Shown: positions 4,062 through 40,800 of the stretch, piece after piece | Numbering within the stretch: the stretch's first letter is position 1 | Layout of the letters: every line of letters begins with the position of its first letter | NCBI GenBank assembly: GCA_903813345.2 | Contig: CAIIXF020000012.1 | Location: forward strand, 4,255,318-4,319,317 | Direction of reading: 5' to 3' | DNA length: 64,000 nucleotides | Origin: Owenia fusiformis | Lineage: Eukaryota > Annelida > Polychaeta > Sabellida > Oweniidae | The notes under the pieces: generated by a model | Told to the model about the DNA's origin: nothing | The model's input: the letters and a program-made list of their open reading frames with translations, nothing else | The model's database searches: none | Made by a program: the position numbers and the translations under genes

Positions 4062-5015
4062 CAATTCTTTTCGGGTCGGATGGATATTGAGTTGGAAAAA
4101 GAGAACGGTGAGGGTAGAAACTCTAAGGAAACTCTTCTAAAGTGCCTTAACAGGTTTTAAGAAGGTTATAAAATTCCACACCCCTATTTGAAGGGCTTTT
4201 AAGGTCATATCTGAAAATAATTGCTGCTGTTAACATGGCCAAGGGGGGACTTATTGACTTGTAATGTGGTGTAAAATTGAACTTTATTTTGACAAAACAC
4301 TAACTTTAAAATGACTGTAACTTTTTCCCATTTGGGAGTTAAACCATGATACTTGACAAATCAATATAACTTTGGATAAGCTTTAAAATGATAAATGACA
4401 CATACTCTGAGGACACTGGAATATGTATGCCTAGGGAGGGGGGGGGGCATACTTTCGGGACACCCTGTATATGACAAGTCCATGCACACAGGCGTTGTTT
4501 TCTAAACTTAGCACTCATTTCTGCGAATCTCGTGCAAAGTTGGAAACACCCTGTATTATTTTGAAAAAAGTAGCTCGCGCTTTTAAAAAAATGGACCAAC
4601 ATTTACAAAAGTCCGGCCAAATTTTCAAAAGGGTGTCAAACAAATTTTGTGGATAATTAGATCTGATATTATACGTGAAGTCTCAATGGCAATTATTATT
4701 TAGAGAGTAAATAATGCCGTTAAATAATGACATTTAAGATCTGATTCTTACTAATGTGACTGTGGGCGCATGCGTATAAATTTTATTGATGCATAATGTA
4801 CACGTAGTGAGATTTGAGAAATCATATAATAAAAGGGATAAAAGGGTTATATCTAATTTTGCATTCACTAAAAATTCGAATGGAGGTTAGATTCTTAAAG
4901 CTGGCCCTTTCAGCTTTCCAACGGTATGTATTGGAGCCCAAGTGCAGAGGTGGTCATTTATATCACCCTAGTTTGCTCTACTACGTATAAGTCATTTTGC
5001 CTCAAATCCGACCTA
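4062..5015. other. No gene seen between the integrase fragment and the Ty3 element
   Basis: AT-rich unassigned sequence. A poly-G run lies at 4437-4447, followed by the phrase ACACCCTGTAT, a common end of dispersed invertebrate repeats; it recurs at about 4547. I find no splice-bounded exon. Confidence 0.35.
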
Positions 5016-5250: not shown

Positions 5251-5436
5251 TAGAACCCTGAAATGCTCTGAAATGGACTGAACAGTGAGTAGAGTGAAGA
5301 GGAAAATACTTTGAAAAATTTTGACAGAAAATTTATCAATTTATGAAAGCTTGCAAGAATTAATTGGAGTTTATCATAGATATCTTCACTGGATTAACAT
5401 TGTATCAGTGCCAAATAAACATATCAGATATTGATA

Positions 5437-8400
5437 ATGGCGTGTAAATTACCACCACCAGAGGGATTTAATTTCGCTACACCAAACTTATGGCCTGCAT
5501 GGAAGAAGCGATTCCACAGGTTCAGGCTTGCTACAGAACTATTCAAGAAGCCTAATGAGGTGCAAGTGAGTGCATTATTGTATGCAATGGGATCAGAGTC
5601 TGAGAAAATATATGAAACATTTGTATTTCCACCAACACCTGTTGTTGAAGGTGAGGAAGGTCAGCCAGTCGCTCAAGGTGCAATTGCTGCTAGTGTAGAG
5701 CCGGACTATGATCTAGTGATCCAGCGTTTTGATGGATATTTTATTCCGCAACGAAATATTGTATATGAACGTACTGCATTTGAAAGGATGACGCAGGCTA
5801 AAGGTGAACCAGTTGAACAATATATTCGTCGACTTTACGAGCAAGCTGCTAAATGTGAGTTCACTGACAAGGATGAACGGATTTTAATGCGGATAATTAT
5901 TGGCATTACTGACTCTGAATTGTCATTAAAGCTACAGGAACCAAGGGAACCAGAATTAACATTGTCTCAGACTATAGCTATGGTACGGAGCAAGGAACAA
6001 GTACAACTCGAGAATAAGGCTCTGTCGACTGAAGTTGAAACCGTATCAGCGATTAAGGATCGAAAGACATTTAATTTCAGCAAGTCAAAGCCAGTGCGAC
6101 AAAAATCTGAGGCTTCCAGTAAGAAGCCAGATTCCCAAACTGCCATCCGTAATGATTGTTCTAAGTGCGGACTTACACATGATAGGGGACATTGCCCGGC
6201 GGCTAATCGAAAATGTAATAAGTGCGGAAAAATGGGGCACTACGGGAGAAAGTGCCGATCAACATCCTGTAAGAAGGCTGTCAGAGAGGTCGAATGCGAC
6301 GACAGTTCAGACGACATTGATGATGTTTTCTACATTGATAATGTGAACGTAAGTACGGTTCGATCTACTAATGTACAACCCTGGAGAATTTTGTTGCCAG
6401 TAAACAAGAATATCATTGATTTCAAAATTGATACTGGGGCGGATGTGTCTGTGCTCAGTCATGATATTTATACTCAGTTAGACCCCAAGCCCAAGTTGAA
6501 GTCTATGGGGGGTAGGTCTGTAACTAGTCCTGGGGGGGATTTATCTGTGGTAGGAGAGTTTGTAGCAGAGGTGCCATATCGCAATGTAAAATATAAAATG
6601 CGGACTATAGTAGTCAAAAATAAGACTGATTGTTTACTTAGTCGAGCCGCAGCGGATAAAATGAACCTAGTGACGCGTAATCAGTGGGTAAACAATGTTC
6701 GCGAAGAGAAGATTATTATGTCCGGAGATTCCGTCGGCAAAAGTACAAAATCTCGCGAATTACCCATAATGAAATGTAAACCAGTGACCATATCATTAAA
6801 TGAGGATTGTAAACCATATTCACTCGCCGTGCCGCGACGCATTGGATTAAATCTAATGAAACCGTGCCGAGAGCAGTTAGAGAAAATGGTTGAAAGGTCA
6901 GTTATACGCCGCGTCGAGGAGCCCACTGATTGGGTAGCGCCTATGGTTCCGGTTTTGAAGAAAAACGGGTTGGATGTCCGTATAGCGGTGGATTTGAAAA
7001 GATTGAATCAATCTGTAAAACGTGAAAGATACGTTATGCCTACGCTAGATGATATTACACACAAGTTGGCAAAATGCAACACATTTTCAAAATTGGATGC
7101 CAAGAGCGGTTATCACCAGATACCTTTAAATCCGGAGTCGCAACTGTTGACCACATTTATTACACCGTTTGGGAGGTTTTGTTTCCAAAGGTTGCCAGAG
7201 GGGGTAAGTTGTGCACCTGAGATTTATCAGAGGACAATGTCTGAGATTCTTAAAGATATGCCTGGAACATCAGTTTGGATGGATGACATCCTTGTGTATG
7301 GTAAAACAGTTCAAGAGCATAATAAGAATCTTGACAATGTTCTCAAACGCTTAAAAGACATGAATGTGACATTGAATCGCGAGAAATGTGAGTACAGGAA
7401 ATCAAGCATTGAATTTCTTGGATACATTTTCAGCGAAAATGGAATGAGTCCAGATCCAAAGAAAGTACAAGCGATTGTGGACATGCAAAAGCCTTCTAAC
7501 GTAGAAGAGCTTAGACGGTACCTCGGGATGGTTCAATTCCTTGGTCGGTTTGTGCCAAATTTATCGACGGTTTTGAAACCGCTCAATGAGCTATTGCGTA
7601 AGGATAATGTGTGGGTATGGACAGATATACAACAAGATGCTTTTGATAAGGTCAAGTCCATGCTTTCTACAGCACCGAGTTTAGTGTATTATGAAATTGG
7701 ACGTCCTACAATGGTAAGTGCAGATGCCAGTTCCTACGGGTTAGGGGGAGCAATTTTTCAGAAACATGAGAAAGGATGGCTTCCGGTAAGTTTCGTATCA
7801 CGTACCTTGACTGATGCTGAGACAAGATATGCACAAATCGAAAAAGAGTGCCTGGCCTCAGTCTGGGTATGTGAGAGGTTTGATCGATATCTCATAGGCT
7901 GTGAAAAGTTCAAACTCTTGACGGACCACAAACCATTGGTACCTTTGATTAGGGATAAGGATATAGACAAAGCTCCGATAAGATGTCAGCGGATGTTGCT
8001 ACGGTTACTTAGATATAATCCCGAGGTTGAACATTGCGCAGGGAAAAATTTGGTAGTTGCGGATCAGTTATCGCGATCTCCATTAAATTCCACTTTTGGA
8101 GCTCAAGACAGTATCGACAGTATTGAGAGTTATGTCAAATCAGTGATTACTGATATACCTATTTCACCCACCAGATTAGACATGATAAGAGAGGCAACAA
8201 AGTCAGATAGTAATTTATCGCGAGTATATGCATATACACTTTCTGGTTGGCCCAAATATCACAAAGATGTGTCTATTGAGTTGAGACCATATTACGATGC
8301 GCGCGCTTCTATCAGCGTTTACGATGAGTTACTTCTATTCGGGAATAGAATCATTATCCCCATGTCAATGCGTGACGATATTCTAGAAAAGATTCACGCG

Positions 8401-9579
8401 GGTCATTTTGGGATTCAAAAATGTCGTGAGAGAGCTGCCACAAGTGTTTGGTGGCCAGGCCTTTCAAGTGCCATTCAAAATAAAGTCGCTAATTGTCAAC
8501 ATTGTGAAGAAAAGCGAGCTTCAAATCCAAGCGAGACACTATTACCAACACCATTACCAGACAGACCTTGGCAAAAACTAGCCACGGACCTTCTAGAACA
8601 TGCTAAAAAGAACTATCTTGTAATAGTTGACTACTTTTCACGTTATTTAGAGGTTTTACATGTTCCTGGGTCTGTGACTTCCCAACAGGTCATTGACAAA
8701 CTTAAAACTGTGTTTGCAAGATTCGGTATTCCTGAGACCTTGATATCGGACAACGGACCTCAATTTAAGTCATATGAGTTTAAGCGGTTCGCAGAAGAAT
8801 ACGATTTCAAACACGTAACGAGTAGTCCACATTTTGCGCAGGCTAACGGCCTCGCAGAACGCGCAGTTCAAACGGCCAAGCGTATTTTATCAACAAATGA
8901 CCCTCAGTTAGGTCTTATGAGTCACCGTGCAACTCCAGTTAATGCTACAGGCAAAAGCCCAGCACAGCTGCTCATGGGACGTAACTTGAGAACCACATTA
9001 CCCACTATTTCAAAGAATCTTGATCCTGATTGGTCGGATATGAGAGAAATGAGAAATCGCGATCAGAGAGCAAAACTGATTTATGCAAAGAATTTCAATT
9101 CTAACAAAGGGGCAAAAGCCTTACCAGAACTAAAATCGGGAGATCGGGTTAGAATCAAGTTAGACAAAGAAAAACAGTGGAGTTCACCAGCGAAAGTAGA
9201 GAGAAAAGCGCAAACTCCGCGTTCATATATTGTTAATCATGAGGGGTCTCTTTATCGGAGAAATAGAAAGAATCTACTCCAAACTCAAGCCATGTTAAAA
9301 CCAAAGCTTTCATGGGATAAACTGTTCCAAAATACTGATTGCCCTCAAACTCTTGAGTCACATGCAAGACCAGTTACAAATCAGATTGAGAGTCCTATTA
9401 AGAATATTCCACTCAGCAAGCTTCCCAATCTAAGCACAGATACTGAGCTTCAAACCCCTTCATTTCATGCTAGTGGCAACCAGGGTATTAGTAGTTCCAA
9501 CAGTGCTTCAACAAGTATGAGTGGATACACCACACGTAGTGGTAGAGCAGTAGTAAAGCCACTCAGATACCAGAACTAA
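5437..9579 (+). CDS. Ty3/gypsy Gag-Pol polyprotein (single frame)
   Basis: A 1380-residue fused Gag-Pol starts at the ATG at 5437, whose frame is open only two codons further upstream. Domains in order: a Gag capsid-like region (1-235); two zinc knuckles near 241-275 (C-x2-C-x3-H-x4-C and CNKCGKMGHYGRKC); an aspartic protease with DTGADVSVLS near 331; reverse transcriptase with DLKRLN, LDAKSGYHQ and the catalytic WMDDILVYG near 615; RNase H with SADASSYGLGGA near 762 and TDHKPL near 829; an integrase HHCC zinc finger near 985-1025; and the DDE core with TDLL near 1050, SDNGPQF near 1104 and NGLAERA near 1140. The tail ends with a TTRSGR motif common in this clade. Gag and Pol share one frame without a frameshift. 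No chromodomain or envelope is seen. It appears intact. Confidence 0.95.
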   Translation: MACKLPPPEGFNFATPNLWPAWKKRFHRFRLATELFKKPNEVQVSALLYAMGSESEKIYETFVFPPTPVVEGEEGQPVAQGAIAASVEPDYDLVIQRFDGYFIPQRNIVYERTAFERMTQAKGEPVEQYIRRLYEQAAKCEFTDKDERILMRIIIGITDSELSLKLQEPREPELTLSQTIAMVRSKEQVQLENKALSTEVETVSAIKDRKTFNFSKSKPVRQKSEASSKKPDSQTAIRNDCSKCGLTHDRGHCPAANRKCNKCGKMGHYGRKCRSTSCKKAVREVECDDSSDDIDDVFYIDNVNVSTVRSTNVQPWRILLPVNKNIIDFKIDTGADVSVLSHDIYTQLDPKPKLKSMGGRSVTSPGGDLSVVGEFVAEVPYRNVKYKMRTIVVKNKTDCLLSRAAADKMNLVTRNQWVNNVREEKIIMSGDSVGKSTKSRELPIMKCKPVTISLNEDCKPYSLAVPRRIGLNLMKPCREQLEKMVERSVIRRVEEPTDWVAPMVPVLKKNGLDVRIAVDLKRLNQSVKRERYVMPTLDDITHKLAKCNTFSKLDAKSGYHQIPLNPESQLLTTFITPFGRFCFQRLPEGVSCAPEIYQRTMSEILKDMPGTSVWMDDILVYGKTVQEHNKNLDNVLKRLKDMNVTLNREKCEYRKSSIEFLGYIFSENGMSPDPKKVQAIVDMQKPSNVEELRRYLGMVQFLGRFVPNLSTVLKPLNELLRKDNVWVWTDIQQDAFDKVKSMLSTAPSLVYYEIGRPTMVSADASSYGLGGAIFQKHEKGWLPVSFVSRTLTDAETRYAQIEKECLASVWVCERFDRYLIGCEKFKLLTDHKPLVPLIRDKDIDKAPIRCQRMLLRLLRYNPEVEHCAGKNLVVADQLSRSPLNSTFGAQDSIDSIESYVKSVITDIPISPTRLDMIREATKSDSNLSRVYAYTLSGWPKYHKDVSIELRPYYDARASISVYDELLLFGNRIIIPMSMRDDILEKIHAGHFGIQKCRERAATSVWWPGLSSAIQNKVANCQHCEEKRASNPSETLLPTPLPDRPWQKLATDLLEHAKKNYLVIVDYFSRYLEVLHVPGSVTSQQVIDKLKTVFARFGIPETLISDNGPQFKSYEFKRFAEEYDFKHVTSSPHFAQANGLAERAVQTAKRILSTNDPQLGLMSHRATPVNATGKSPAQLLMGRNLRTTLPTISKNLDPDWSDMREMRNRDQRAKLIYAKNFNSNKGAKALPELKSGDRVRIKLDKEKQWSSPAKVERKAQTPRSYIVNHEGSLYRRNRKNLLQTQAMLKPKLSWDKLFQNTDCPQTLESHARPVTNQIESPIKNIPLSKLPNLSTDTELQTPSFHASGNQGISSSNSASTSMSGYTTRSGRAVVKPLRYQN

Positions 9580-17296: not shown

Positions 17297-20200
17297 ATGG
17301 AGGAGAAGAACGTAAGTATTCTATCAAGAGGTTTGACTTGCTGCTTTTATTCTTCATTTTATGAGTCAACAACACATGCGAGGATTCATATTTGAGGAAG
17401 TCAAGACAACATTTGTACTCTACAGGTGCGATATACCAGGTTCAGAGATTAGTGATCGTACAACTTACCAGGTTCAGAAATCAGTGATCAATACACTGAT
17501 AAACCCATGTTCAAAGTTAAGAGATCGTGCAATGTACCTATGTTCAGAGATTAGTGATCGTGCAATGCATTTAGGTTCAGAGATTAGTAATCGTGCAATA
17601 TACCTAGGTTCAGAGTTAAGAGATCGTGCAATGTACCTAGATTCAGAGATTAGTGATCGTACAATATACCACGGTTCAGAAAGTAGCGATCGTGCAATAT
17701 ACTAGTACTTAGGTTCAGAAATTAGTGATCGTGCAATATACCTAGGTTCAGAAATTAGTGATCGTGCAATATCAATAGGTTCAGAGATTAGTGATCGTGC
17801 AATGCATTAAGGTTCAGAGATTAGTAATCGTGCAATGTACCTAGATTCAGAGATTAGTGATCGTGCAATATACGGAGGCAGGGGCGTCCCCGGGATTTTT
17901 CCAAAAAGGGTCCCCTCTACATCTGAAACAGCAAAATTTGCATCTGAAACCTAGCTTCTCCACCTCTTCGCGAGCGCACAGTTCTTGCTTCCTTCGAGTC
18001 GCCTTCTCTTCAACATCGTGAACGAAATCAACGGGGACTGGCTCAAAAAGGGGGATGTTATCGCACCAAGCGCATCCCCCCTTCGGATGCCAATGTGAAT
18101 AAAATAACTAATTAGAAAACATCCCAGGAAAACTTTGTACCAACGGAAAAAATTGAAAATGTTATGGAGTCTGTATTGCAACTTTTGAACTATCACGGCT
18201 TACTCTTTTTATTGGAACATATGTATTTGCCGTTTTTTGAATTCACTGGGCCGTATATTTTGATATGCTTTACGTAAGAAATAGTTCACGTTTAGTAAGG
18301 TCAAATGTTCCTCCCGAGCTCGTGCTTAATATTTCTTGCTCTTTCTCAAACGTATCATTTTTGTATTGGATGTTGGTCACTGTTTTTCTATATATTTTCA
18401 AACCCAATTTTCTGTCTCCTTATAGATGTCGACGCTACCCTCAGAACAGGCAGGATACGGGTATGAACAGCCCCCAAATTACAACCAATCAAACGTTACC
18501 ATACAGCAGCCAGGGGCTCACCCCCCAGTTCCAAATCCTCAAGCGGCTATGTCCCACACCACAGTTGTACAGTCTCAACCAGGACGAGGAGGGATGAACC
18601 CCAATGTTGTTACAACTGGCGGAGGAATACATCAGACAACTATTGTTAACACGCACACTAAGAGAAATTGGTCATCCGGTATATGCTCATGCTTCGATGA
18701 TTTGGGAAGCTGTAAGTATCTTTTATGTTATTACACTTACCACCCATCGAAGCTTTCCACTGGGTCTAGAGGGGTAGGAACAATTGGATTATTGGAACCT
18801 TGTAAATCAAGATGCTTACCAGTGCCCTTTTAGCCAGGATCATCAAAATAATTAAAAAGGCGTCTGGCGCTTTATCAGTCATATTTTTTGCTATTTTCTC
18901 TATTACTGATCATCTCTCTAAACATAATGCCGTACAATGTCTGACCAACTGGCGTAAATTCCAAAGAATTCTGGAATGGTTGGAAAGTTAGAAAGGATTC
19001 TATAGTAATAAATTGAAGTCATGAATATGATAGAACCATTATCAATGATTAAATGTGTTCAACAAGAGAATGTGAGACATGAAATAAAATGATATTGTTA
19101 GTTAAGTTTAGGAATGCATCATTTTTAAAATTTCATGAAATATATCGATTAATAGAATGAAATTATAGCCATTTTGTTATAGAATTAGAGATAATCGACT
19201 TTAGATTCAGAGTTCCCTCCTCAATTCAAAATTAGGGGTAACACATAAAACAATGAACTTGAAGTTGTAAGATTACTAATACGTTGTAGTAATTATGTTA
19301 CGATTATAACTCTTAGCCTATCTCAATCAAGGGAAAGATCAATACCCGGTGATTTCAGCGGGAAGTGGCGTTTCGTTCAGTGGATGAGCTGCGCGCGCAC
19401 GCATAAATGCGATTCTCAATCACCCTATATGTAAAACATCGTATTAAACTTAGCCTATGCATACCAAAGTAATATCAGATGTGGATATAATGTGTGTTTA
19501 TTGTGTTACGCGGTAAACACGACACTAAAATATGTCATATTCCGCAACGAATATGGCATATTCACTTGTGGTGTATGACAGATTCACCTGCGGTATATGG
19601 CATACACACTAACCAATGAGAACGTGATACGGAAGTACGAAATTGTCGATTGCATCGATTGAACGAACAAGTATAACGTTATAGATTATTATAATGATTA
19701 CTGAATCAAAAGTACTGTGTATCGAATATATTAACTAAGCAGAAGTATCAGTCACCAATCTCGCGTAATAAACTTATTCAATCAATCCAGGATTGATATA
19801 TTAGTACTCGACGCACTAACTATATTGGTTTTGCATTAGAGTCGATTCTCGCAACCAATCAAATCAAGGCTTTCTTTATCACGTTTTCACCTGCGGTATT
19901 TGTCATATTCACCTGCGGTATATGGCATATTCTGCAAGTGAGTATGACATATTCCGCAGGTGAGTATCGGGTACTCACTGAAATCAATGTATCGCATATT
20001 CACTGCGGAATATCGCATACTCACCTGCGGAATATGCCATATACCGCAGGTGAGTATGTCATAATCACATGTATCACAAAAACCGCGCAACCATGAATGT
20101 ATGCCATATACCGCGTAACATATTTAGCAAAATAGTTACATCATATCCTTAATTTCACTAGACTAATATTTGATGAGGGGTAAAAATCGTCTGAAAATCA

Positions 20201-23200
20201 TAGGGTCACACTTATGCGTTTGTAATACAATGTTTTTAACCATTGTTAGTTTTCTTTTTAAATTTTCATCTGATTTCCACTATTTATTTACAATATTTAT
20301 AGAACCTCCAAGATAAAGTACCACGCACCTTTTTCTTTACTATTTCGAAAGTCCTTTGAACCATTTTAAGGGAAAGTGATTATACCTAATTATACCTCTC
20401 AGATCTTTTCTAGCAATCGATAGATTGAATGTGTGTAGAGAAATTAATTGTTTTATTGCAGCATAGAGTTTTATGGTTATACCATTACATGTATATGTTT
20501 TGTTGTGTTCTACATGTACCTTATCTTGTACCATTTGTTTTCACTTGACTTGGCCTCTTAAAGAGCTAAACTCTACACTCAGCAGACTCATAGCCAGCTT
20601 TTGCAGAGGGGGCTCATTTTTTAAAAAATGGGGCTCAAATCACTTGAAAAGTGCTAAAAATGGTAAAAAACTGCATGATGTTGAAAGAAGTCTTGGCCAG
20701 AAGTAACCCATCTGGATACTGGGCTGGGATGAAATACATTAGACTCTGTTTTGCATCACGTTTGAACAATTGTAAAGGAGGTGTCAGAAAAACGAACAAG
20801 ACAAAATAGGAACTCTTGAACAACATGTAATACAAACTGTCCTCGAACACTGGGAAACAATGACCTACAATTTCCAAAGAAGAAGACCTGAAAGTTAAAA
20901 ACACAGTTCAGCAGTTAGAAAAGAAATATGTGTGGGACCCCAGCATTCATATACTGCAATTAACGAAATAACTTGAAAGTTGTTTACCCCGCACCCAAGA
21001 TATAGTTAAAAACTTAAGACGAAGGCTGTATTTTGGACATGATTTTGACCGCGACCATGATTTTAATCCCCAAAAATTACCGAGATTGTAGTTAGATTGA
21101 ATGATACTCGCGGTTAAAACAGAAATATTACGCAAGATCGTGTCAAAGTCACTTGGTCTATACAAAAATGCACCCTAAGAAAACTTAAAGAAAAACGAAT
21201 GCAAAGTGTAAAGTTGCTTAATATATAAGGGTTATGTACTGGGAGGTTTTGGATACAGGTTTTATCCCAAGGGAAATATGTGTATATCCCGAGGGACCGC
21301 AGGGACCGAGGGATATACACATATTTCCCGAGGGATAAACCCTGTATCCAAAACCGACCGTACATAACAGATGTATTTCATACCTACTGATGTTCTAGGT
21401 ACGTCATATACCCTATAAAGTTCCAAAATTCAAAAATATACTTAAGATACGCATTTTCTTGGTGTTATTTTAAGTTTGTGAGATTTTCAAACTCATATAA
21501 CTCATATTTTGAAAAATAAAATTTGAAAAAAAAAATTTTGGGAAAAATAGGGAAATTTTTTTTTGAAAAAATGTGAGTTTTTTTGAAAATTTTGGGAAAA
21601 ATTCAAAAAAAAATTGCCCAAAAATGTGAAAAAAATTCAAAAAAAAATTGAAAAAATTGTGAAAAAAAATTTCAAGAGCGGGACCGGGATGGATACAGCG
21701 TGTATCCATCCCGCCCCGGGCCTTGGCTAGATACAGTATATATTCCCGCTCGTTATGTACCTAGAACCTCAGTAGGTATGAAATACTGGTGTTTATTTAC
21801 CCTGGTAAGTGCAATATTGTCAATGCTTGGCTACTATCCCGGTGGTTTACGCTGTATAAATATTAAACAGCACTTCCCATGTCACGATGACATCCAAGTT
21901 ATTAGAATACATTCAGACATCGATCCGTGTATAAACAGAACCCACAACAGTAAAATGTTATTCTAAAATGGCAAATGAAATGGACTTCGCATAAAATTCT
22001 TATACCAAGCGCCCCTCCTTATTTTAACTCTCGCTTCTGGCTATACCCCTTACAGGCCCGTAGCCAGAGGGGGAGCTGGGGGAGCGGAAGCTCCCCCCCC
22101 TGGCCCCCCCTGGGCAGAAATTCTTTCAAAATCATGCAGTTTTTCACCATTCTGAGAATTTTTCGTATGATTTTTAGCCAAAATTGTGAAAAAGCTCTCC
22201 CCCTGGAAAAAAGCTCCCCCCCCTGGTAAAAGCTGGCTACGGGCATGCCTTACCATTTCTCCAATTTAGTATTGCTACATTCAAGCACGATGGCAGTGCA
22301 ATCATTCTGTTTTACCTATCTTCTATTTTAAAAAGTTCTACCGCTGCTGCCATCTTTATATCGCTCTAAACCTCTATTTTATATAAACAATGTGTTTTTG
22401 TGGTTTCAGGCTGTTTTGCCACATGGTGTCCAGCGATAATGGACTGTGTCCTTGCGGATGAGATGGGAGAAAGCTTCTGCGTGCCCGTCTGCGTTCCTGG
22501 TGGCACAATTCTCATAAGGCAGAAATTACGTCTCGAGAATAACATTCAGGTGCGTAAGAGGGGGGGGGGGTATCCAAAGTGTTATATACAGTCGTTGAAC
22601 CTATATCCATTGTGGGATCCACAGTATATATTATCCTTTTGAATAGAGATACTGAGTCTCTTTGGATAAAGACTGAAAAATCATGATGACCAATCTCCAT
22701 CTAAAGAAGATGAAACTCTTTGACGTTGTCATAAAGATAGTAGGTTCACCTATGAATCTTAGTGTACTCCCCCAGGGTGTTTTACTGAGTTGCTGCAGTA
22801 AGGGGATGGTCAATTGACCCTGTTTCACTTGAATGGTTCCCGTGACATGGCACTTGAATTAATCTTAAAACTATAGTCTAATATAAGGACTTGAATATAA
22901 AATATATAAATGTGTGATGACTGCTGTAACTATACAGCTACACTACAAATGTAGAAACGTTTGTGTTTATGGCTGTGTACAACTACAAATGTAGCAACGT
23001 TTGTATTATGTTACAGGGGACGATGTGTGGTGGCTGCATTATGGATGTATATAATTGCAAATATAGCAACGTTTGTGTTCATATTACAGGGGATGATGTA
23101 TACATTATATTACAGGGGTCGGTGTGTGATGACTGCGTTATGGCTGTGTACAACTACAAATGTAGCAACGTTTGTGTTTATATTACAGGTGTCGATGTGT

Positions 23201-25239
23201 GGTGGCTGCATTATGGATGTATATAACTGCAAATATAGCAACGTTTGTGTTCATATTACAGGGGACGATGTATACATTATATTACAGGGGTCGGTGTGTG
23301 ATGAATGCGTTATGGCTGTGTACAACTACAAATGTAGCAACGTTTGTGTTTATATTACAGGGGACGATGTGTGATGACTGCATTATGGCTGTTTATAACT
23401 ACAAATGTAGCAACGTTTGTGTTTATATTACAGGGTTCGGTGTGTGATGACTGCATTATGGCTGTTTATAACTACAAATGTAGCAACGTTTGTGTTTATA
23501 TTACAGGGTTCGATGTGTGATGACTGCATTATGGCTGTTTATAGCTTCAAATGTAGCAACGTTTGTGTTCATATTACAGGGTTCGGTGTGTGATGACTGC
23601 ATTATGGCTGTTTATAACTACAAATGTAGCAACGTTTGTGTTCATATTACAGGGTTCGGTGTGTGATGACTGCATTATGGCTGTTTATAACTACAAATGT
23701 AGCAACGTTTGTGTTTATATTACAGGGGTGTGTTGTGTGATGACTGCATTATGGCTGTTTATAACTACAAATGTAGCAACGTTTGTGTTTATATTACAGG
23801 GTTCGATGTGTGATGACTGCATTATGGCTGTTTATAGCTACAAATGTAGCAACGTCTGTGTTTATATTACAGGGGTGTGTTGTGTGATGACTGCATTATG
23901 GCTGTTTATAACTACAAATGTAGCAACGTTTGTGTTCATATTACAGGGTTCGATGTGTGATGACTGCATTATGGCTGTTTATAGCTACAAATGTAGCAAC
24001 GTTTGTGTTTATATTACAGGGGTGTGTTGTGTGATGACTGCATTATGGCTGTTTATAACTACAAATGTAGCAACGTTTGTGTTCATATTACAGGGGTCGG
24101 TGTGTTATGACTGCATTATGGCTGCTTATAACTACAAATGTAGCAACGTTTGTGTATATATTACAGGGATTGGTGTGTGATGACAGCATTATGGCTGTAT
24201 ACAACTACAAATGTAGCAACGTTTGTGTTCATATTACAGGGGTCGGTGTGTGATGACTGCATTATGGCTGTTTATAACTACAAATGTAGCAACGTTTGTG
24301 TTTATATTACAGGGTTCGGTGTATGATGACTGCATTATGGCTGTTTATAACTACAAATGTAGCAACGTTTGTGTTTATATTACAGGGTTCGGTGTATGAT
24401 GACTGCATTATGGCTGTTTATAGCTTCAAATGTAGCAACGTTTGTGTTCATATTACAGGGTTCGGTGTATGATGACTGCATTATGGCTCTTTATAGCTAC
24501 AAATGTAGCAACGTTTGTGTTTATATTACAGGGTTCGGTGTATGATGAATGCGTTATGGCTGTGTACAACTACAAATGTAGCAACGTTTGTGTTCATATT
24601 ACAGGGGTCGGTGTGTGATGACTGCATTATGGCTGTTTATAACTACAAATGTAGCAACGTTTGTGTTTATATTACAGGGGTGTGTTGTGTGATGACTGCA
24701 TTATGGCTGTTTATAACTACAAATGTAGCAACGTTTGTGTTCATATTACAGGGGTCGGTGTGTTATGACTGCATTATGGCTGCTTATAACTACAAATGTA
24801 GCAACGTTTGTGTTTATATTACAGGGATTGGTGTGTGATGACAGCATTATGGCTGTATACAACTACAAATGTAGCAACGTTTGTGTTCATATTACAGGGG
24901 TCGGTGTGTGATGACTGCATTATGGCTGTATACAACTACAAATGTAGCAACGTTTGTGTTCATATTACAGGGGTCGGTGTGTGATGACTGCATTATGGCT
25001 GTATACAACTACAAATGTAGCAACGTTTGTGTTCATATTACAGGGGTCGGTGTGTGATGACTGCATTATGGCTGTATACAACTACAAATGTAGCAACGTT
25101 TATATTACAGGGGTCGGTGTGTGATGACTGCATTATGGCCGCATGTTGTTACCAATGTCACCTTTGCCAAATGAAGAGAGAGATCAAATACATACAATGC
25201 GCACAGCAACAGATGACCGTCATTCAGACCGGTTACTAA
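17297..25239 (+). CDS. PLAC8/cornifelin-like cysteine-rich protein (4 coding exons)
   Basis: Coding exons: 17297-17311 (MEEKN, donor gtaagt), 18426-18711, 22410-22549 and 25111-25239; intron phases 0, 1, 0; total 189 residues. If the first exon is not used, the ATG at 18426 gives 184 residues. The N-terminus (about 1-80) is Pro/Gln/Asn-rich and low complexity. The PLAC8 domain (about 83-170) contains NWSSGICSCFDDLGSC, CFATWCPAIMDC, GESFCVPVC, then across the last junction IQGSVCDDCIMAACC and CHLCQMKREIK, the family hallmark. PLAC8 proteins are small membrane-associated or cytosolic cysteine-rich proteins with roles in growth or metal/cell-size control; the role here is unknown. An AG acceptor at 17254 suggests an upstream non-coding exon. 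The last intron is packed with copies of the last exon's own start (22937-25110). Confidence 0.9.
17430..17876. repeat. 33-bp tandem repeat in PLAC8 intron 1
   Basis: About 13 units of roughly 33 bp based on TTCAGAGATTAGTGATCGTG. Because 33 is a multiple of three, much of the array is open in one frame as an 11-residue repeat (SEISDRAIYLG-like), but it is intronic and has no gene context. Confidence 0.9.
19329..19412 (+). repeat. Dispersed repeat, partner at 59961-60040
   Basis: About 80 bp containing GATTTCAGCGGGAAGTG and CAGTGGATGAGCTGCGCGCG. The inverted copy at 59961-60040 lies 40 kb away in a GGT intron and differs at only a few bases. Confidence 0.8.
19520..20125. repeat. Cluster of CCGCAGGTGAGTAT palindromes
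   Basis: Short phrases CACCTGCGGTATATGGCATA and their inverted forms recur at about 19520-19610 and 19888-20125. The best palindrome is 20016-20058, with 15-bp arms (CATACTCACCTGCGG) and a 13-bp loop. The inverted phrase contains CAG|GTGAGT, a consensus 5' splice site, in the sense direction of PLAC8 at about 19946 and 20047. Confidence 0.8.
20588..20715 (-). repeat. Diverged copy of the 22053-22249 foldback family
   Basis: Reads TAGCCAGCTTTTGCAGAGGG, GGTAAAAAACTGCATGATGTTGAAAGAA and then CTTGGCCAG in pieces that match the reverse complement of 22053-22249 along its length. Confidence 0.65.
21231..21791. repeat. Composite foldback repeat, copy 2
   Basis: A near-perfect 138-bp hairpin at 21231-21368 (about 67-bp arms, GC centre CCGCAGG) abuts a unit bounded by inverted repeats at about 21368-21404 and 21754-21791 (TATTTCATACCTACTGA type). 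The interior is A/T homopolymer-like and then a GGGACCGGGATGG palindrome region. Same architecture as 11984-12456. Confidence 0.8.
22053..22249. repeat. Foldback element with GCCCGTAGCCAG ends
   Basis: About 200 bp beginning GGCCCGTAGCCAG and ending CTGGCTACGGGCATGCC, with G-rich and C-rich blocks inside each arm. It lies just upstream of PLAC8 exon 3. Confidence 0.8.
22937..25110 (+). repeat. 73-bp tandem array of a 3' splice site plus start of the PLAC8 last exon
   Basis: About 30 units, mostly 73 bp with some of 74 bp; 25-bp partial units lie at 23087 and 23283. Each unit has a T-rich stretch, TTTATATTACAG, then GGGTCGGTGTGTGATGACTG and CATTATGGC, then ~44 bp of intron ending in the next acceptor. 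The GGGTCGG...ATGGC part equals the first 29 bases of the true last exon at 25111, which alone continues into the CHLCQMKRE coding sequence. The array therefore arose by tandem amplification of the intron-exon boundary. Units are open in two frames; the third is closed by TGA. Alternating 73/74-bp units keep a 205-codon frame open at 23563-24180. No good 5' splice site is seen within a unit. Confidence 0.95.
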
Positions 25240-25759
25240 ACAAAGGCAGTTATCATAAAAACAATGCCAAAGATCTTTTACTCTGGGTCTGATGATCACA
25301 TGATTCGTCTACAACAGTTAAACTGTGGGGGTCCTTGTCGAGGGGAGCAAGATGAAATCTGATGACATGTTAATGAAACGCTAGAAAAAAAATCATTAAC
25401 GATATATTTTAATGATATTCAATAGTTGATATTAGTTATATGATCATTGACTATATGTAAGTTACAAAGAAAGTGCTTTTAGAAAGTATCACAAAGTACT
25501 ATCTGTATCTCTGAAAATTGTAGGTACCTGTTATATTTTAGTAAAAAGTTCAAGATTAATTTACAGACCTTTACCAATAGGGTTTCGAAACAGTATATCC
25601 TGTATTCACCTTTTAGTGAGGGCAATAATTATACATTTATAACATGTACAACAGTAATTACAATTCAGGTCCATTTTACTGATGTCCGCGAGATATATAT
25701 TCTTGTACACTAAAGTAGCCTAGATAAAATACTGGCGATGACACTGTTACCATAATAAA
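25240..25759. other. PLAC8 3' flank
   Basis: Presumed 3' UTR and flank. The first AATAAA I see is at 25754-25759, directly at the border of the foldback element, overlapping its target duplication. Confidence 0.35.
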
Positions 25760-28869: not shown

Positions 28870-31800
28870 TTAGGCTGCTTTGCATTTCCCTGTAAATATT
28901 ATATTATTTTAATGATATAATACGAGGGATACCCAAAAATTCATAGATGAACCAATCTTCATGATAAGATGAACTTCTATTGGTTCATTTTTTACAAAAA
29001 TATAAGTTCATCCGTGAATTATGAATAATGGGGTATTATCTCTTCATCGATGAATGATCGTAAAGCAAAAATGGCAATATCAGAGCAACATAAGACAAAT
29101 CACTGTACATCGACTTTTGTGATCTCAAACCTTACCATTTGTGCTTTCTCAAAACTCCCACAAAAATACTCTAAATTACCACAATTCTATTATGTGCAAG
29201 TGGAGTGCCAGAAGTTTTATACAATAATATAAATATCACTGGTCCCCAACTGGTTATGATAAACAAATGGTGACCAGTGAATATATTAGATAAAATATAA
29301 CCCAATATAGTCATGCGTCTATTTTAAATCACGTGTATTAGCGCGTTAGCTTACGATGGATGATCCATGAATAGTACTAGTAGGCTTAAATATTAGTATT
29401 ATTTCACGGTCACCCCTCGTATATGCAGCTAACACCAACATAATGATAGCACTGGTATATTTACCCGTTATGGAAAGTGAATCCTTAGAATCACAAGTGA
29501 ATCCTTTACGACAAGGACAGTCGACATGTACTGGTTTGACGTTATAGTCCACGTCGTTGTTAGCAACGACACATCCTGTAAATTAAACATACTTGCTTTA
29601 ATATTTTTCCCAACACGAATTTAAATGGAGAGTAGGACCATAATTTGATAGGACCTCCTACCCTTTTACACTTTCTAGATCTTACTCTTATACATGTCTC
29701 ATCTAGTTACTCTGGTTACTCATCTAGTAACCAGTACACTTGGGGAGTTTTTAAACATTTTTAACATATTCCTGGGCCCCAGCAAGTGAATATGCCATTG
29801 ATGAGACCCATCCAAGAGAACATCATATACGCATGCGCATTTTTTTGTCAAGAAGCGCAACCTTTAATCACCCTGGACTTCTATATGGCTTTCACATAGT
29901 TTCTAACCTTCAGAGTCGTCTTTAAGAGGCTTACAAACACCTTCACTTCCAGTGTCATCTGTCAATACACAACAATCTCCAACATTTGGACAGTCTTGGG
30001 GCGATGAGCAGCGCTGTACCCCAGTCTGTAAGTTTCAAATTAGAGGTATCTTTCTATATGATTTTTCTTAATCAGCATATGGTTCAATTTGAAAATAGGC
30101 GTTACCAAATACTTTTTTTTATTAATCATTTTTATTTCAAGTTCATATATTATAACATTTAATTTCATACAATGAAAATTCAACAAGGTTAATCAATTTA
30201 ACATTTGTGTTGAACTTCGAAGTAAATATACCATACACTTATATGCAATACAAATTTGTTACAATTATTCGTAACTATTCATATATAAACAAAAAGGAAA
30301 AAGTACAATTAAAGCTGATATTGGAATGCTTTACAAAAAAAGGTGTGCAGTGGTGTAAATTATGGGATGGTGAAATATACATGTTAGTCAATCTTGGTTG
30401 CTTGTAGGAATTTTAAAGTTGCTTTCAGCAGAAGTGTATTATCTTCATTACTAAGTTCACTGTTACCATGCAAGAGCATATTTACTTTGCTAACAGAGTT
30501 AGCATCTAAGAATTTTTCTAAACAACCAATAATATGGAGATCTATAAGTAGTTGGATTCTATCATTTACAAATTGGGGGCATTTGAGGAAAACATGAGTA
30601 GGGGTTTCATTTTCATGACCACAGTTACAGGCTGGTGAGTCAATGTTTGTAAAGTGATGAGCAAATAATTGACTTTTTAGAAATAGGTCCACTTTTAACC
30701 TGTTAAATATAATTTCAGTTTTTCTAGTGATATCAAGTGATGCTATTATATTTATACATTTTTCATTCCCGAAATGCTTTCTAAGTTTGCCTTTAAAAGT
30801 TGATATTCTATTGCAATTTCTTAAATCATTAGGCAGACCATTCCATTCTTCAATCGCAACAAAATATGTAGTTTTTCTAAATGAAATGCTGATATTTAGA
30901 GGCACAATATACTCTCTGACAGCCCTTAGAATTCTATTTGGTTCATGTAAGTATTTATTAAATAATTCAGTGACATATGAAGCTGATAAATTGATTCTAC
31001 TTTTAAATAGAAATGAGCAAAGATGGCTTCTTCTTCTCTCAGACAAAGTAATCCAATTTAATGTCTTCAAGACCTTATAGGTGCTTGAACCATGCAGAGC
31101 ACCGGAAATTAGACAAGCTGCATTATAATGCAGTCTTTCAAGTTTGATGGTAGCTATATTTGGAGCACTATTGTAAATTATATCAGCATAATCAATTTTA
31201 CTTAGAATAAAAGAATTATATATGGTTTCCAAATGATTCGAACGAAGAATGTGAGTTAATTGTTTAAATGGATTTAAGATTGTCTGTAATTCCTTGGTGA
31301 GCTCATTAACATGTTCCTTGAAATTAAGCTTTTGATCTAAAATAACACCAAGGTGTTTATGACTAATAGTTTTAGGAATGGGGTCACCTCCCAAATAGAG
31401 TATAGGTTCATTAACAGGGTTAGTTAAAGGTGATGTAAAAGTCAGGTCAGCACTTTTTGATGCCTTAAATTTCATTTGCCAGGTATCAGCCCAGGTTTTA
31501 ATTGTATTTAGGTCAATTTGCAGATTTTGAGAGAGTAAAGGGCTTTTCTTAGAGTAAGGAAGGAAGATTGATGTATCATCTGCATAAATGAAAGTCTTAC
31601 AATTTAGATTATCAGGTAGATCATTTATATATATTAAAAACATAAGCGGCCCTAATACACTGCCTTGAGGCACACCAGCATTGATAAAATCAGGTTCTGA
31701 CCATTTCGAGAAAGAATTATTTACTTTAACCAAATACTTGGAGGGCAATTTTTTATTGAGGGCCCAAAAAGCTTTAGAATATGATTGAATCGTCTCTTGT

Positions 31801-34526
31801 TTTTGTCAGCTGATTTTAATTTTTAAAATATCACCAGCAGACACTAGGGAATATTTATTGTGCGAGTATACTCGCCACCAAACACCAGAAAATATCAATT
31901 GTGCGAGTGTACTCGCCAGCAAACTCCAAAAAATGTCAATTGTGTGAGTATACTTGTCAGCAGATGGCAGGGGATACCGATTGTGCGAATATACACATCA
32001 ACAAACACCAGGGTATGCCAATTGTGCGAGTATACTTGCCACCAAACACCAGGAAATGTCTAGAACATAGAACATGGTCAAAATGTTCTCGTGGTCGATA
32101 CGTTCTACAATTAGAACGAGTGACAACGTACTAAATACGAGCGGGACGTACTACGAACGGAACCGTCGTACTTCAATCCTACTAGGGACGTTTTAACAAC
32201 GATTTGAATTGTCTGATGACGTATTGAGAACGAGGTAGAACTGATTGCTTTTTACAAAGTGTTTTGGGTTAAAGTGAAAACACTAGTTGTAAATTCATTG
32301 AATTTTGGTTTCCAATCTGGTCAGTTATCAACTAGTCAGAGACAAGGGATAATCATACTTTTACTTAAAGGGAATAATTTACCAAGAAACAAGCTAAAAT
32401 CATTTCGTCCAATATCTTTAACATGCTCAGATTATAAGATTGGGGCTACAGTTCTTGCAAACAGATTACAAGTGGTCATTAAAAAGTTAGTAAATAGTGA
32501 TCAAAATGCATACCTTAAAGATAGAGGAATACACCTTAACCTGAGATTAATAGATGATGTCATGAACTTTATATATAATGATGACCAAGAAGGAATTATT
32601 GCAGCACTGGATTACAGCCGGGCTTTTGATTCAATTTCTAAAAAGTTTGTATTTAGAGTTTTGGAAAAGTTCAATTTTGGGCCAGAATTTCAAAAATGGA
32701 TAAAAGTTTTTAACAAAAATACAAAGTCCATGGTTTCTAATAATGGAGTTTTCACAAATTCTTTTAATCTAAATCAAGGATTGAGACAAGGTTGCCCTTT
32801 GAGTTCTCTGATTTTTATTATATCAACAGAAGTGTTTGCTTGCAAAATACGTCAAGATAATAACGTTGAAGGCATCAAGATAAACAACACCGAAATCAAA
32901 TTGACTAGTTATGCAGATGACACAACGATTTTTATTAAAAATATTAAATCCTTGGAAAATATACTGATTCATTCAAATAATTTCTATAAAACTTCTGGAC
33001 TAAAACTAAATATGATTAAAACAAAAGCAATGTGGCTTGGAAAAAATAAGAATAATGTTAATGCTCCATTGGGAATTGATTGGCAAATTGGAAAATCAGC
33101 AAAAATTAAAATACTAGGTGCTTATTTCTCTAACCATAAATCAGCACATTTGTTAGATGAAAATTGGAGAGATAAAATAGATAAGATGGAGTGCATTATG
33201 AAATGCTGGGACAAAAGAAAATTATCTTTAGCTGGTAAAGTGTGTGTGTTAAAAAGTCTCATTTCATCACAAATTTTACACATGTTAATGACATTCAAAT
33301 GTCCAGATAACTATTTAAAAGAGCTCAATACAAAAATGTACACATTTTTATGGAAAAAATCAGGTAAGGGCTCAGAAAAGATTAAACGAAAAGTATTACG
33401 GCAATCATACAAAGATGGTGGAATAAATATGGTAGATGCTTTTTTAAGTCAGGAATCTCTCATTCTCACTTGGGTTAAAAGGTTTATGAATGGTGAAAAT
33501 TCAATGTGGAAAGGTGTTAGTAAAATAATTTTAGCCAAAACAGGTCATGATTTTGATATTTTTATATGTAACTCAGATCTGAAAGATCTAAAACCTCAAA
33601 TTAACCTAGATATGCTCCCAGAATTTTACTCCTTTCTATTAAAGACATGGTTCAAATATCGAGAGTATGATGAAGAAATCTGTAAATCAGATTTATTATG
33701 GAATAATCGATGCATTGTGTTCAAACATAAACAAATGTATTTTAAACAATGGAAGGATGCAGGTATCAATTATGTTGCTGACATACTGGATACAAATAAA
33801 CATGTTAAGTCATTAGAATTTTTCAAACAAAAAATGCAAAATAATGCAGCCATTGTTCTGGAATACAATGTAATTCGCAATGCAATGATTAATAAGAAAA
33901 TGGGTATGAATAGATCAAAAGGTGAGAAGATGTACAATAATGTAAAGATAAAAAACCTAACTTCAAAGGATGTAAGGAAAATGATTCTAAAGAAAGACCA
34001 AGTTGTGCCTATTTGCATTGAAAGGTGGAAACATGTTTATCCAGATTTAAATTGGAAAAAAAATTGGCAGTTAATTCAAACTCTCAAAGAGCCACGACTT
34101 AAGAGCATTCAATATAAGATTTTACATAATATTTACCCAACTAATACTCACCTTTTCAAATGGAAAATTGAAGGAGTTGCCTCAAAGAATTGTACATATT
34201 GTAATGAGGAAGATTCATATGCACACTTTTTCATTTCTTGCAAAAGAGTAAAGTCTTTATGGAATGAAGTAGAGTGCAAACTAAATGCTAGATTTGGGCA
34301 CAGAATTAGACTAGGACACAAACACATTTTATTCAAGTATGAATGTAAAACAAAAAAGGAAGAAGACTACATCAACTATATCATTGTTATTGCTAAGAAT
34401 TGTATAAGTAAGTACAAATATGGGGATTATCCCAATTTACTGTGCTTGTTTGATCAAGAATGTAATATTAGAAATGTATAAAATTATGTACAATGATTGG
34501 AGAAAATAAATCGCAATAAAAAAAAA

Positions 34527-37857: not shown

Positions 37858-40800
37858 TCTGGCAGAAAGTGTTCATATAATTGTCATTGTCAATGTCCCT
37901 CTTCTGTCATAGCTTCTTATTCATATCTAATAAAAGACGTGGCCCTGACAGAATGTGTTTATGTAATGTCATTGTCAATGTTCCTCTTCTGTCATAGCTT
38001 CTTATTCACATCTAATAAAATACTTGGCCTTAAAGAATGTGTTTATATAATGTCATTGTCAATGTTCCTCTTCCGTCATTGCTTCTAATTTATATCTAAA
38101 AAAAGACGTGACCCTGACAGAATGTGTTAATATAATGTCATTGTCTATGTTCCTCTTCTGTCATAGCTTATTCACATCTAATAAAAGACGTGGCCTGACA
38201 GAATGTGTTTATATAATGTCATTGTCAATGTTCCTCTTCTGTCATTGCTTCTTATTCACATCTAATAAAAGACGTGACCCTGACAGAATGTGTTAATATA
38301 ATGTCATTGTCTATGTTCCTCTTCTGTCATATCTTATTCACATCTAATAAAAGACGTGGCCCTGACAGAATGTGTTTATGTTATGTCATTGTCAATGTTC
38401 CTCTTCTGTCATAGCTTCTTATTCACATCTAATAAAATACTTGGCCTTAAAGAATGTGTTTATATAATGTCATTGTCAATGTTCCTCTTCTGTCATTGCT
38501 TCTAATTTACATCTAATAAAGACGTGACCCTGACAGAATGTGTTAATATAATGTCATTGTCTATGTTCCTCTTCTGTCATAGCTTATTTACATCTAATAA
38601 AAGACGTGACCCTTACAGAATGTGTTTATATAATGTCATTGTTTATGTTCCTCTTCTGTCATAGCTTCTCATTCACATCTAACAAAAGACGAGGCCCTGA
38701 CAGCTTGTGTTTACATAATGTCATTGTCTATGTTCCTCTTCTGTCAAAGCTTCTTATTTACATCTAATAAAAGACGTGGCCCTTACAGAATGTGTTTATA
38801 TAATGTCAATGTTCCTCTTCTGCCATTGCTTCTTGTTCACATCTGATATAAGACGTGGCCCTGACAGAATGTGTTTATATAATTGTCATTGACAATGTTG
38901 CTTTTCTGTCATAGCTTCTTATTTACATCTAATAAAAGACGTGCCCCTGACAGAATGTGTTTATATAATGTCATTATCAATGTTCCTCTTCTGTCATAGC
39001 TTCTTATTCACATATAATAAAGGCGTGGCCCTGACAGAATGTGTTTATATAATGTCATTGTCTATGTCCCTCTTCTGTCATAGCTTCTTATTCACATCTA
39101 ACAAAAGACGTGGCCTTGACAGAATGTGTTTATATAATGTAATTGTCTATTTTCCTCTTCTGTCAAAGCTTCTTATTCACACCTAATCAAAGACGTGGCC
39201 CTGACAGAATGTGCTTATATAATGTTATTGTCAATGTTCCTCTTCTGTCATTGCTTCTTAGTCACATATAATAGAAAACGTGGCCCTGACAGAATGTGTT
39301 TATATAATGTTATTGTCAATGTTCCTCTTCTGTCATTGCTTCTTAGTCACATATAATAGAAAACGTGGCCCTGACAGAATGTGTTCATATTATGTCCTTG
39401 TCAATGTTCCTCTTCTATCATTGCTTCTTATTCACATCTAATAAAAGACGTGGCCATGACAGAATTTGCTTATATACTGTCAATGTTCCTCTTCTGTCAT
39501 TGCTTCTTATTCACATCTAATAAAAGACGTGGCCATGACAAAATGTGCTTATATAATGTCAATGTTCCTCTTCTGTCATTGCTTCTTATTCACATCTAAT
39601 AAAAGGCGTGGCCCTGACAGAATGAATTTATATAAAGTCATTGTCAATGTTCCTCTTCTGTCATTGCTTCTTATTCGCATGTAATAAAACACGTGGCCCT
39701 GACAGAATGTGTTCATATAATGTCATTGTTTATGTTCCTCTTCTGTCATTGCTTCTTATTCACATCTAATAAAAGACGTGGCCCTGACAGAATGTGCTTA
39801 TATAATTCAAATGTTCCTCTTCTGTCATTGCTTCTTATTCACATCTAATAAAAGACGTGGCTCTGACAGAATGTGCTTATATAATGTCAATGTTCCTCTC
39901 CTATCATTGCTTCTTATTCACGTCTAATAAAAGACGTGGCCCTGACAGAATGTTTTTATATAATGTCATTTTCTATGTTCTTCTTCTGTCATAGCTTCTT
40001 ATTCACATCTAATAAAAGACGTGGCCCTGACAGAATGTGTTTATATAATGTTATTGTCTATGTTCCTCTTCTGTCATTGCTTCTTATTCACATCTAATAA
40101 AAGACGTGGCCCTGACAGAATGTGTTTACGTAATGTCATTGTCAATGTTACTCTTCTGTCATAGCCTCTTATTTACATCTAACAAAAGACGTTGCCTTGG
40201 TCGAATGTGTTTATATAATGTCATTGTCTGTGTTCCTCTTCTGTCATTGCTTCTTATTCACATCTAATAAAAGACGTGGCCCTGACAGAATGTCTTTACG
40301 TAATATAATTGTCAATGTTACTCTTCTGTCATAGCTTCTTATTTACATCTAATAAAAGACGTTGCCTTGGCCGAATGTGTTTATATAATGTCATTGTCTA
40401 TGTTCCTCTTCTGTCATTGCTTCTTATTCACATCTAATAAAAGACGTGGCCCTGACAGAATGTGTTTACGTAATGTCATTGTTTATGTTCCTCTTCTGCC
40501 ATAGCTTCTTATTAACATCTAATAAAAGACGCAGCCCTGACAGAATTTGTTTACGTAATGTCATTGTCTATGTTCCTCTTCCTTCATTGCTTCTTATTCA
40601 CATCTAATAAAAGACGTGGCCCTGACAGATTGTGTTTACGTAATGCCAATGTCAATGTTCCTCTTCTGTCATTGCTTCTTATTCACATCTTATAGAAGAC
40701 GTGGCCCTGACAGAATGTGTTCATATAATGTCATTGTCAATGTTCCTCTTCTGTCATTGCTTCTTATTCACATCTAATAAAAGACGTGGCCTTGACAGAA

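What the first reader, a model, noticed from the sequence alone, without database searches (positions are those of the whole stretch)
22937..25110. A gene's last intron filled with ~30 copies of its own 3' splice site and exon start
Each 73-bp unit ends in TTTATATTACAG and then repeats the first ~29 coding bases of the PLAC8-like last exon (GSVCDDCIMA). Only the final unit goes on into CHLCQMKRE. The spliceosome therefore meets ~30 near-identical acceptors before the true one. Use of any decoy would replace the conserved C-terminal half of the PLAC8 domain by KCSNVCVYIT-type residues and a stop one or more units later, because 73 is not a multiple of three; 74-bp units change that phase. This may be a splicing buffer, a source of variable C-termini, or a neutral satellite born from an exon boundary. 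I know of no described case like it, though I cannot search.
Basis: partly seen in the sequence, partly recalled or inferred. Interest (0 to 1): 0.85.

Follow-up and report, generated by a model that had tools for sequence, protein, structure and literature searches.

The report
Repeated splice site in worm gene
In a marine worm, the end of one intron and the start of the exon after it have been copied about thirty times in a row inside the intron; it is a long example of a rare, already named kind of DNA repeat ('mirage'), and it offers a natural test of how cells pick the right splice site among near-identical ones.

Summary
The window is Owenia fusiformis (annelid) DNA. A four-exon PLAC8 gene has a 2,561-bp last intron ending in a tandem array: 30 decoy copies of [intron end + first ~29 coding bases], then the real exon at 25111. 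None of the 30 decoys can encode the real C-terminus. A genome search found the array only here, and six PLAC8 paralogs have the same intron with one ordinary acceptor. The annotated protein uses the last acceptor, whose pyrimidine tract is among the weakest.

'No described case' does not hold: such arrays are known in amphioxus as 'mirages', reported not to disturb splicing. A second Owenia gene about 60 kb away, GPR143, has an acceptor array (5 acceptors) and a donor array (5 donors); its annotated protein uses the last acceptor and the first donor. Tandem triples of acceptor words exceed their reversed controls genome-wide for two of three words.

Best reading: a neutral mirage minisatellite, tolerated because splicing picks the site flush with the real exon. 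I found no coding constraint in the decoys' exon part and no decoy isoform. RNA was not examined. New, as far as I searched: an annelid host and the length.

The parts
17297..17311 (+). Coding part of exon 1 (MEEKN) of the PLAC8-like gene
   Evidence: Splice model gives a 189-aa protein identical to annotated protein P0001
18426..18711 (+). Exon 2 (N-terminal region and start of the PLAC8 domain), donor GTAAGT
   Evidence: PLAC8 match 87-171 of the protein, 54.6 bits, cut-off 34.4
22410..22549 (+). Exon 3 (first half of the PLAC8 domain), ends ...NNIQ, phase-0 donor GTGCGT
   Evidence: same intron position and phase in six paralogs
22550..25110 (+). Intron 3, 2,561 bp, its 3' part filled by the array
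22943..25110 (+). Mirage-type array: 30 decoy copies of intron end plus exon start (spacings 23 x 73, 4 x 74, 2 x 26, 1 x 67 bp), preceded by one remnant that lost its acceptor
   Evidence: the only place found in the genome (29 of 29 matches lie at this locus)
25044..25110 (+). Last unit, 67 bp: 6 bp missing in the tract just before the real acceptor
25111..25239 (+). Real exon 4 (GSVCDDCIMAACCYQCHLCQMKREIK...), stop at 25237-25239
   Evidence: chiton homologue P0002 shares QGSVCDDCI and the Cys pattern after it
25754..25759 (+). First AATAAA after the stop (candidate poly(A) signal of the terminal exon)
   Evidence: sequence motif only

Best explanation
The array is a 'mirage': a minisatellite founded by tandem duplication of the boundary between the last intron and the last exon of a PLAC8 gene in Owenia fusiformis, then enlarged and partly homogenised by unequal exchange or slippage. 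All decoys lie on the intron side of the one copy that runs on into the real exon. Choosing that outermost copy removes the whole array with the intron, so the gene tolerates it. I infer that the choice is set by exon context (a complete terminal exon with its poly(A) site, i.e. an exon-side proximity rule) and not by the local acceptor sequence, since the real acceptor has fewer pyrimidines than 28 of 30 decoys and ties with the other two. Shown: anatomy, single place found in the genome, derived state, annotated junction, no sign of coding constraint in the decoys' exon part. Inferred: mutational mechanism, exon definition as the selector, near-complete use of the last acceptor in RNA.
For: Direction: the exon start GSVCDDCI is shared with a chiton homologue, and 6 of 6 paralogs with a readable 3' junction have the same phase-0 intron; an ordinary acceptor stands there and TRF lists no array (period 15 or more, 3 copies or more) at the junction, so the exon is ancestral and the array derived. 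Place: 29 of 29 genome matches lie at this locus (the tool warns that very common words are skipped). Block duplications: units 16-18 and 25-27 at lag 9 (at most 1 edit each), a 172-bp period over units 1-7, units 28 and 29 identical. No coding constraint in the decoys' exon part. The annotated product uses the last acceptor; the genome annotation used RNA-seq (PMC9977687, passages). Same rule in a neighbouring gene, GPR143: 5 acceptors at 88-89 bp spacing, annotated protein uses the last; 5 donor copies, annotated protein matches the first. Amphioxus mirages are reported not to interfere with regular splicing (PMC3087553).
Against: No RNA read was examined; the annotated model may favour the conserved protein, and overhangs of up to 29 nt cannot tell the real acceptor from five of the decoys. 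The intron-side proximity rule (Reed and Maniatis 1986, as told in PMC9225289) predicts the first acceptor, not the last. The 32 nt before the acceptor vary less among the 73-bp units than the rest (4 of 32 against 20 of 41 positions; P = 0.02 for any window of that width; widths 20, 25 and 35 gave 0.17, 0.10 and 0.02), which weakly hints that working acceptors may be kept. Over the whole unit in the decoy frame, synonymous changes are slightly above expectation (8 seen, 5.1 expected, 19 non-synonymous), but so they are in a frame full of stops (9 against 5.2).
Confidence: 0.78

Rival explanations
1. Decoy-array regulation: U2AF/U2 loads on many decoy 3' splice sites and slows or blocks removal of the last intron, so that the array tunes intron detention, as the decoy exon does in OGT.
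For: 28 of 30 decoys have more pyrimidines before the acceptor than the real one; in OGT, U2AF1 and U2AF2 bind decoy 3' splice sites and the decoy exon promotes intron retention (PMC12017769, passages); weak conservation of the last 32 nt.
Against: The OGT decoy needs its 5' splice site; I saw no strong donor in the unit by eye (best TCG|GTGTGT), not scored. No intron-retention data. Six paralogs do without any array at this junction.
Confidence: 0.08
2. A generator of variable C-termini: different decoys are used to make alternative tails (24 kinds), some up to 175 aa long through alternating 73/74-bp units.
Against: No constraint on the exon part of the decoys; four decoys give a 4-aa tail; one member sequence only for this protein in the database.
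Confidence: 0.05
3. Splicing buffer or back-up acceptors protecting against loss of the real one.
For: 31 acceptors in a row.
Against: 0 of 30 decoys can encode the real C-terminal half.
Confidence: 0.01
4. Assembly artefact: the array is inflated or misplaced.
For: Tandem arrays are error-prone; no second assembly was available to me.
Against: 19 distinct sequences among 23 73-bp units; assembly from PacBio reads with N50 of 25.75-30.75 kb, over ten times the array length (PMC9977687); same kind of array in a second gene.
Confidence: 0.03

Closest known systems
Amphioxus 'mirages' (Adh3; globins BflGb6, BflGb9)
   Same: Minisatellite-like tandem copies of an intron-exon boundary of the host gene; acceptor side (BflGb6: intron end plus exon 2 start) and donor side (BflGb9) both occur; many units carry splice signals; regular splicing reported undisturbed (PMC3087553, abstract and passages; the Adh paper of 2002 itself not held).
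   Different: Cephalochordates, not annelids; BflGb6 has 6 and 3 units in two haplotypes, here 30; length polymorphism not tested here.
ABCA7 intron 18 VNTR (human)
   Same: Intronic tandem array whose 25-bp unit begins with a splice donor; use of a decoy donor keeps exactly one unit and shifts the frame (PMC5954066, abstract and passages).
   Different: Donor side; the passages do not say whether the unit carries exon sequence; low use (2 +/- 1%) of the one-unit form was measured there.
IFI6 (6-16/G1P3) minisatellite
   Same: By its title, a minisatellite that gives multiple splice donor sites in one transcript (Turri et al. 1995; seen only in reference lists; paper not held).
   Different: Donor side; details not read.
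Human internal tandem repeats at exon-intron boundaries in segmental duplications
   Same: Minisatellites at exon-intron boundaries that alter splicing (PMC2812944, abstract and passages).
   Different: Short arrays on average (about 4 x 30 bp), said to form novel introns; single cases not looked at.
Decoy exons (OGT and others)
   Same: Splice sites inside an intron that are recognised but rarely spliced in (PMC12017769, passages).
   Different: Single exons with a 5' splice site, not copies of the next exon's start.

Membership tests
Mirage (tandem intron-exon boundary minisatellite) | Tandem repeat whose unit spans an intron-exon boundary | tested here: met
   About 44 bp intron end + 29 bp exon start per 73-bp unit
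Mirage (tandem intron-exon boundary minisatellite) | Copied from the host gene's own boundary | tested here: met
   5 of 30 decoys identical to the real exon's first 29 bases; found only at this gene
Mirage (tandem intron-exon boundary minisatellite) | Units retain splice signals | tested here: met
   29 of 30 intron-part cores (the last being the real one) are followed by an acceptor; two more acceptors lie in 26-bp units
Mirage (tandem intron-exon boundary minisatellite) | Does not disturb regular splicing | tested here: inconclusive
   Annotated protein uses the last acceptor, but no RNA was examined
Mirage (tandem intron-exon boundary minisatellite) | Homogenisation inside the array, boundaries excluded | tested here: inconclusive
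   Mean distance to consensus 5.6 for long units among 1-7 (n=5), 3.3 for 8-27 (n=20), 4.7 for 28-30 (n=3); but boundary copies 28-30 and 19 are only 6 edits (the 6-bp gap) from the real boundary
Mirage (tandem intron-exon boundary minisatellite) | Length instability between alleles or cells | not testable with these tools
   One haploid assembly only
PLAC8 family (PF04749) | Pfam PLAC8 domain over the curated cut-off | tested here: met
   54.6 bits, cut-off 34.4, profile 1-101 of 101
Decoy exon (intron retention type) | Decoy 5' splice site needed for retention | tested here: inconclusive
   No strong donor seen by eye in the 73-bp unit (sequences); not scored
Decoy exon (intron retention type) | Host intron is retained | not testable with these tools
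   No RNA data

The most novel reading that the evidence does not exclude
Owenia fusiformis carries a genome-wide class of splice-site arrays (acceptor and donor mirages in many genes, perhaps hundreds), all spliced to the copy flush with the real exon; the worm is then a natural library for testing exon-side against intron-side splice-site choice, with thirty-fold competition at PLAC8.
Probability: 0.45. Interest if true: 0.68.

Novelty: new member of a known kind. Interest (0 to 1): 0.45.

Why it matters
With 31 near-identical acceptors competing for one donor, the locus repeats on a natural scale the classical tandem splice-site experiments and pits the intron-side proximity rule (take the first) against the exon-side rule (take the last). 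Arrays in two genes within 264 kb suggest that mirages, which the passages I read place in cephalochordates, are also an annelid feature, bearing on how introns lengthen and how new introns might arise.

Tried and rejected
Rejected: splicing buffer (0 of 30 decoys encode the real C-terminus); dispersed satellite (29 of 29 genome matches at this locus); RNA structure of the unit (fold energies no better than shuffles: z 0.38, 0.26 and 2.35 for three stretches); coding selection on the decoys' exon part. The genome-wide claim was only partly supported: TTGCAGG triples 769 against 92 for the word read backwards, TTTCAGG 1547 against 274, but TTACAGG, the word of the PLAC8 array itself, 827 against 774, hardly any excess. 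These count overlapping matches, so large arrays dominate, and the backward form of TTGCAGG contains a CpG. Single-word ratios in 264 kb with TRF arrays masked are 1.21, 1.69 and 1.14 (17/14, 61/36, 33/29). Pyrimidine content before TTGCAGG in 11 printed arrays averages 0.62 (P = 0.025 against 0.5). Of 13 typed strings one was dropped because the second copy was not printed and one as a second block of the same array; with the latter kept, 12 strings give 0.60, P = 0.04: suggestive only. A donor-word count (GGTAAGT) was asked for eight times and never answered. Paper searches; only led to mirages.

Full report
WHAT IS THERE. The window lies in a 498-Mb assembly at C12:4255318-4319317. The spliced product of exons 17297-17311, 18426-18711, 22410-22549 and 25111-25239 is 189 aa and is 100% identical over its full length to an annotated protein of Owenia fusiformis whose contig has the same length as C12 (36,706,527 bases). 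Pfam gives PLAC8, 54.6 bits against a cut-off of 34.4.

THE ARRAY. Intron 3 (22550-25110, 2,561 bp) ends in an array with 31 TTACAG acceptors, the last being the real one. Spacings: 23 of 73 bp, 4 of 74, 2 of 26, 1 of 67. Each full unit is about 44 bp of intron end and 29 bp of exon start. Twenty-four of 73 positions vary among the 23 units of 73 bp, 13 of 29 in the exon part and 11 of 44 in the intron part (Fisher P = 0.13). Of 30 intron-part cores 29 are followed by an acceptor. The first units are irregular (a remnant without acceptor, two 26-bp units in a 172-bp period), and near-identical blocks at lag 9 and lag 2 show piecemeal duplication.

WHAT A DECOY WOULD DO. Read from exon 3 in phase 0, all 30 decoys end in stops before the conserved Cys-rich C-terminal half; tails run from 4 to 175 aa, 24 different ones. 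In the exon part of the units, changes are 2 synonymous and 11 non-synonymous where 15 and 66 are possible; over the whole unit in the decoy frame 8 and 19, with 5.1 synonymous expected, much as in a frame full of stops (9 and 17, 5.2 expected). So there is no good sign that decoys are held as coding sequence. The protein search returned one member sequence for this gene, the one using 25111.

THE REAL ACCEPTOR IS NOT THE BEST ONE. In the 16 nt from -20 to -5 it has 9 pyrimidines, 7 of them T. Decoys 3 and 6 have 9 pyrimidines and 8 T; the other 28 decoys have 10 or 11 pyrimidines and 9 or 10 T. Among the full-length units it alone lacks 6 bp of the tract. What sets it apart is position and the exon that follows. 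Two rules are described (PMC9225289, passages): the splice site nearest across the intron (among 3' sites, the upstream one, after Reed and Maniatis) or, under exon definition, the one nearest across the exon. The annotated junction fits the second. I did not test it on RNA.

WHICH CAME FIRST. A chiton homologue carries GIQGSVCDDCI followed by the CC..C..CQ pattern. Seven Owenia paralog loci show a matching exon 3 end; in the six with a readable 3' junction (L039, L040, L041, L042, L043, L046) the last PLAC8 exon begins with GS or GT codons right after an ordinary acceptor such as TTTTATTTCAG, in phase 0. TRF lists no array at these junctions, although some of the loci hold other tandem repeats elsewhere. 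The exon start is ancestral and the array is derived.

NOT A ONE-OFF. In the window plus 200 kb of flank, 21 tandem arrays have a period of at least 28 and at least 2.5 copies; their consensus and flanks were printed. Three of these 21 are built from an exon edge, as far as I could recognise; the other 18 were judged by eye only. Besides PLAC8, two belong to GPR143 (ocular albinism type 1 family, PF02101). In GPR143 an acceptor array has five acceptors at 88-89 bp (units starting L014:6025-6380), and the annotated protein P0003 reads on from the last; a donor array has the true donor at L014:7866 and four further copies 4.5 kb downstream (L015:2364-2664), and the protein matches the first. So in 3 of 3 arrays the annotated protein uses the copy flush with the real exon.

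GENOME-WIDE HINT. Tandem triples (52-82 bp apart) of TTGCAGG number 769 against 92 for the word read backwards, of TTTCAGG 1547 against 274, of TTACAGG 827 against 774. On contig C1 (62.2 Mb) I count by eye 10, 13 and 11 separate arrays in those lists; scaled up that would be a few hundred arrays for these words, not all of them from exons. This supports a class of such arrays without proving its size.

WHAT IS KNOWN. [quoted passage not shown] They say that the Adh3 data and globin RT-PCR suggest no interference with regular splicing, that length and even somatic instability occur, and that mirages may seed new introns. The Owenia array fits this anatomy. Donor-side relatives in people are the ABCA7 VNTR (PMC5954066, abstract and passages) and, by title only, the IFI6 minisatellite.

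VERDICT. A real, striking and unusually long mirage in an annelid, most likely neutral and tolerated. It is a new member of a known kind. Its value is as a natural experiment in splice-site choice and as a pointer to mirages outside cephalochordates. In what I saw of searches no acceptor-side case outside cephalochordates was spelled out; the human cases of PMC2812944 were not looked at one by one, and most subscription papers are not in that library.

Noticed in passing
L014:5962-6485, L014:7784-7958 and L015:2295-2688 (C12, about 37-44 kb upstream of the window): GPR143-like gene with an acceptor array (5 acceptors, 88-89 bp) and a donor array (5 full donor copies; four of them at 100-bp spacing 4.5 kb downstream of the first).
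   Followed up: yes
L040:2168-2704: 32-bp array whose unit reads TATATAACAG|GATTCAATATGATT|GTAAGTG, carrying both acceptor-like and donor-like words, about 100 bp after the apparent stop of a PLAC8 paralog.
   Followed up: no
window 37859-43484: 85-bp satellite, about 66 copies over 5.6 kb, with 170- and 255-bp periods also reported.
   Followed up: no
window 62669-62955: 29-bp array, 9.9 copies, ending about 20 bp before a TTCCAG acceptor-like site; the stretch after it looks like a gamma-glutamyltransferase exon (name recalled, not tested).
   Followed up: no
window 17426-17873: 33-bp array, 13 copies, in the first intron of the same PLAC8 gene, about 115 bp after its donor.
   Followed up: no
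window 5419-9579, 3306-4160, 30384-31805 (-), 32220-34481: Retroelement open frames: a 1386-aa frame with reverse transcriptase, RNase H and integrase domains, a separate integrase frame, and two further reverse-transcriptase frames.
   Followed up: partly
L041, L044, L039, L046 (C7:3.22-3.24 Mb): Four PLAC8 paralog loci within about 20 kb; in three of the four (L041, L039, L046) the last intron was seen to sit where it does in the window gene.
   Followed up: partly
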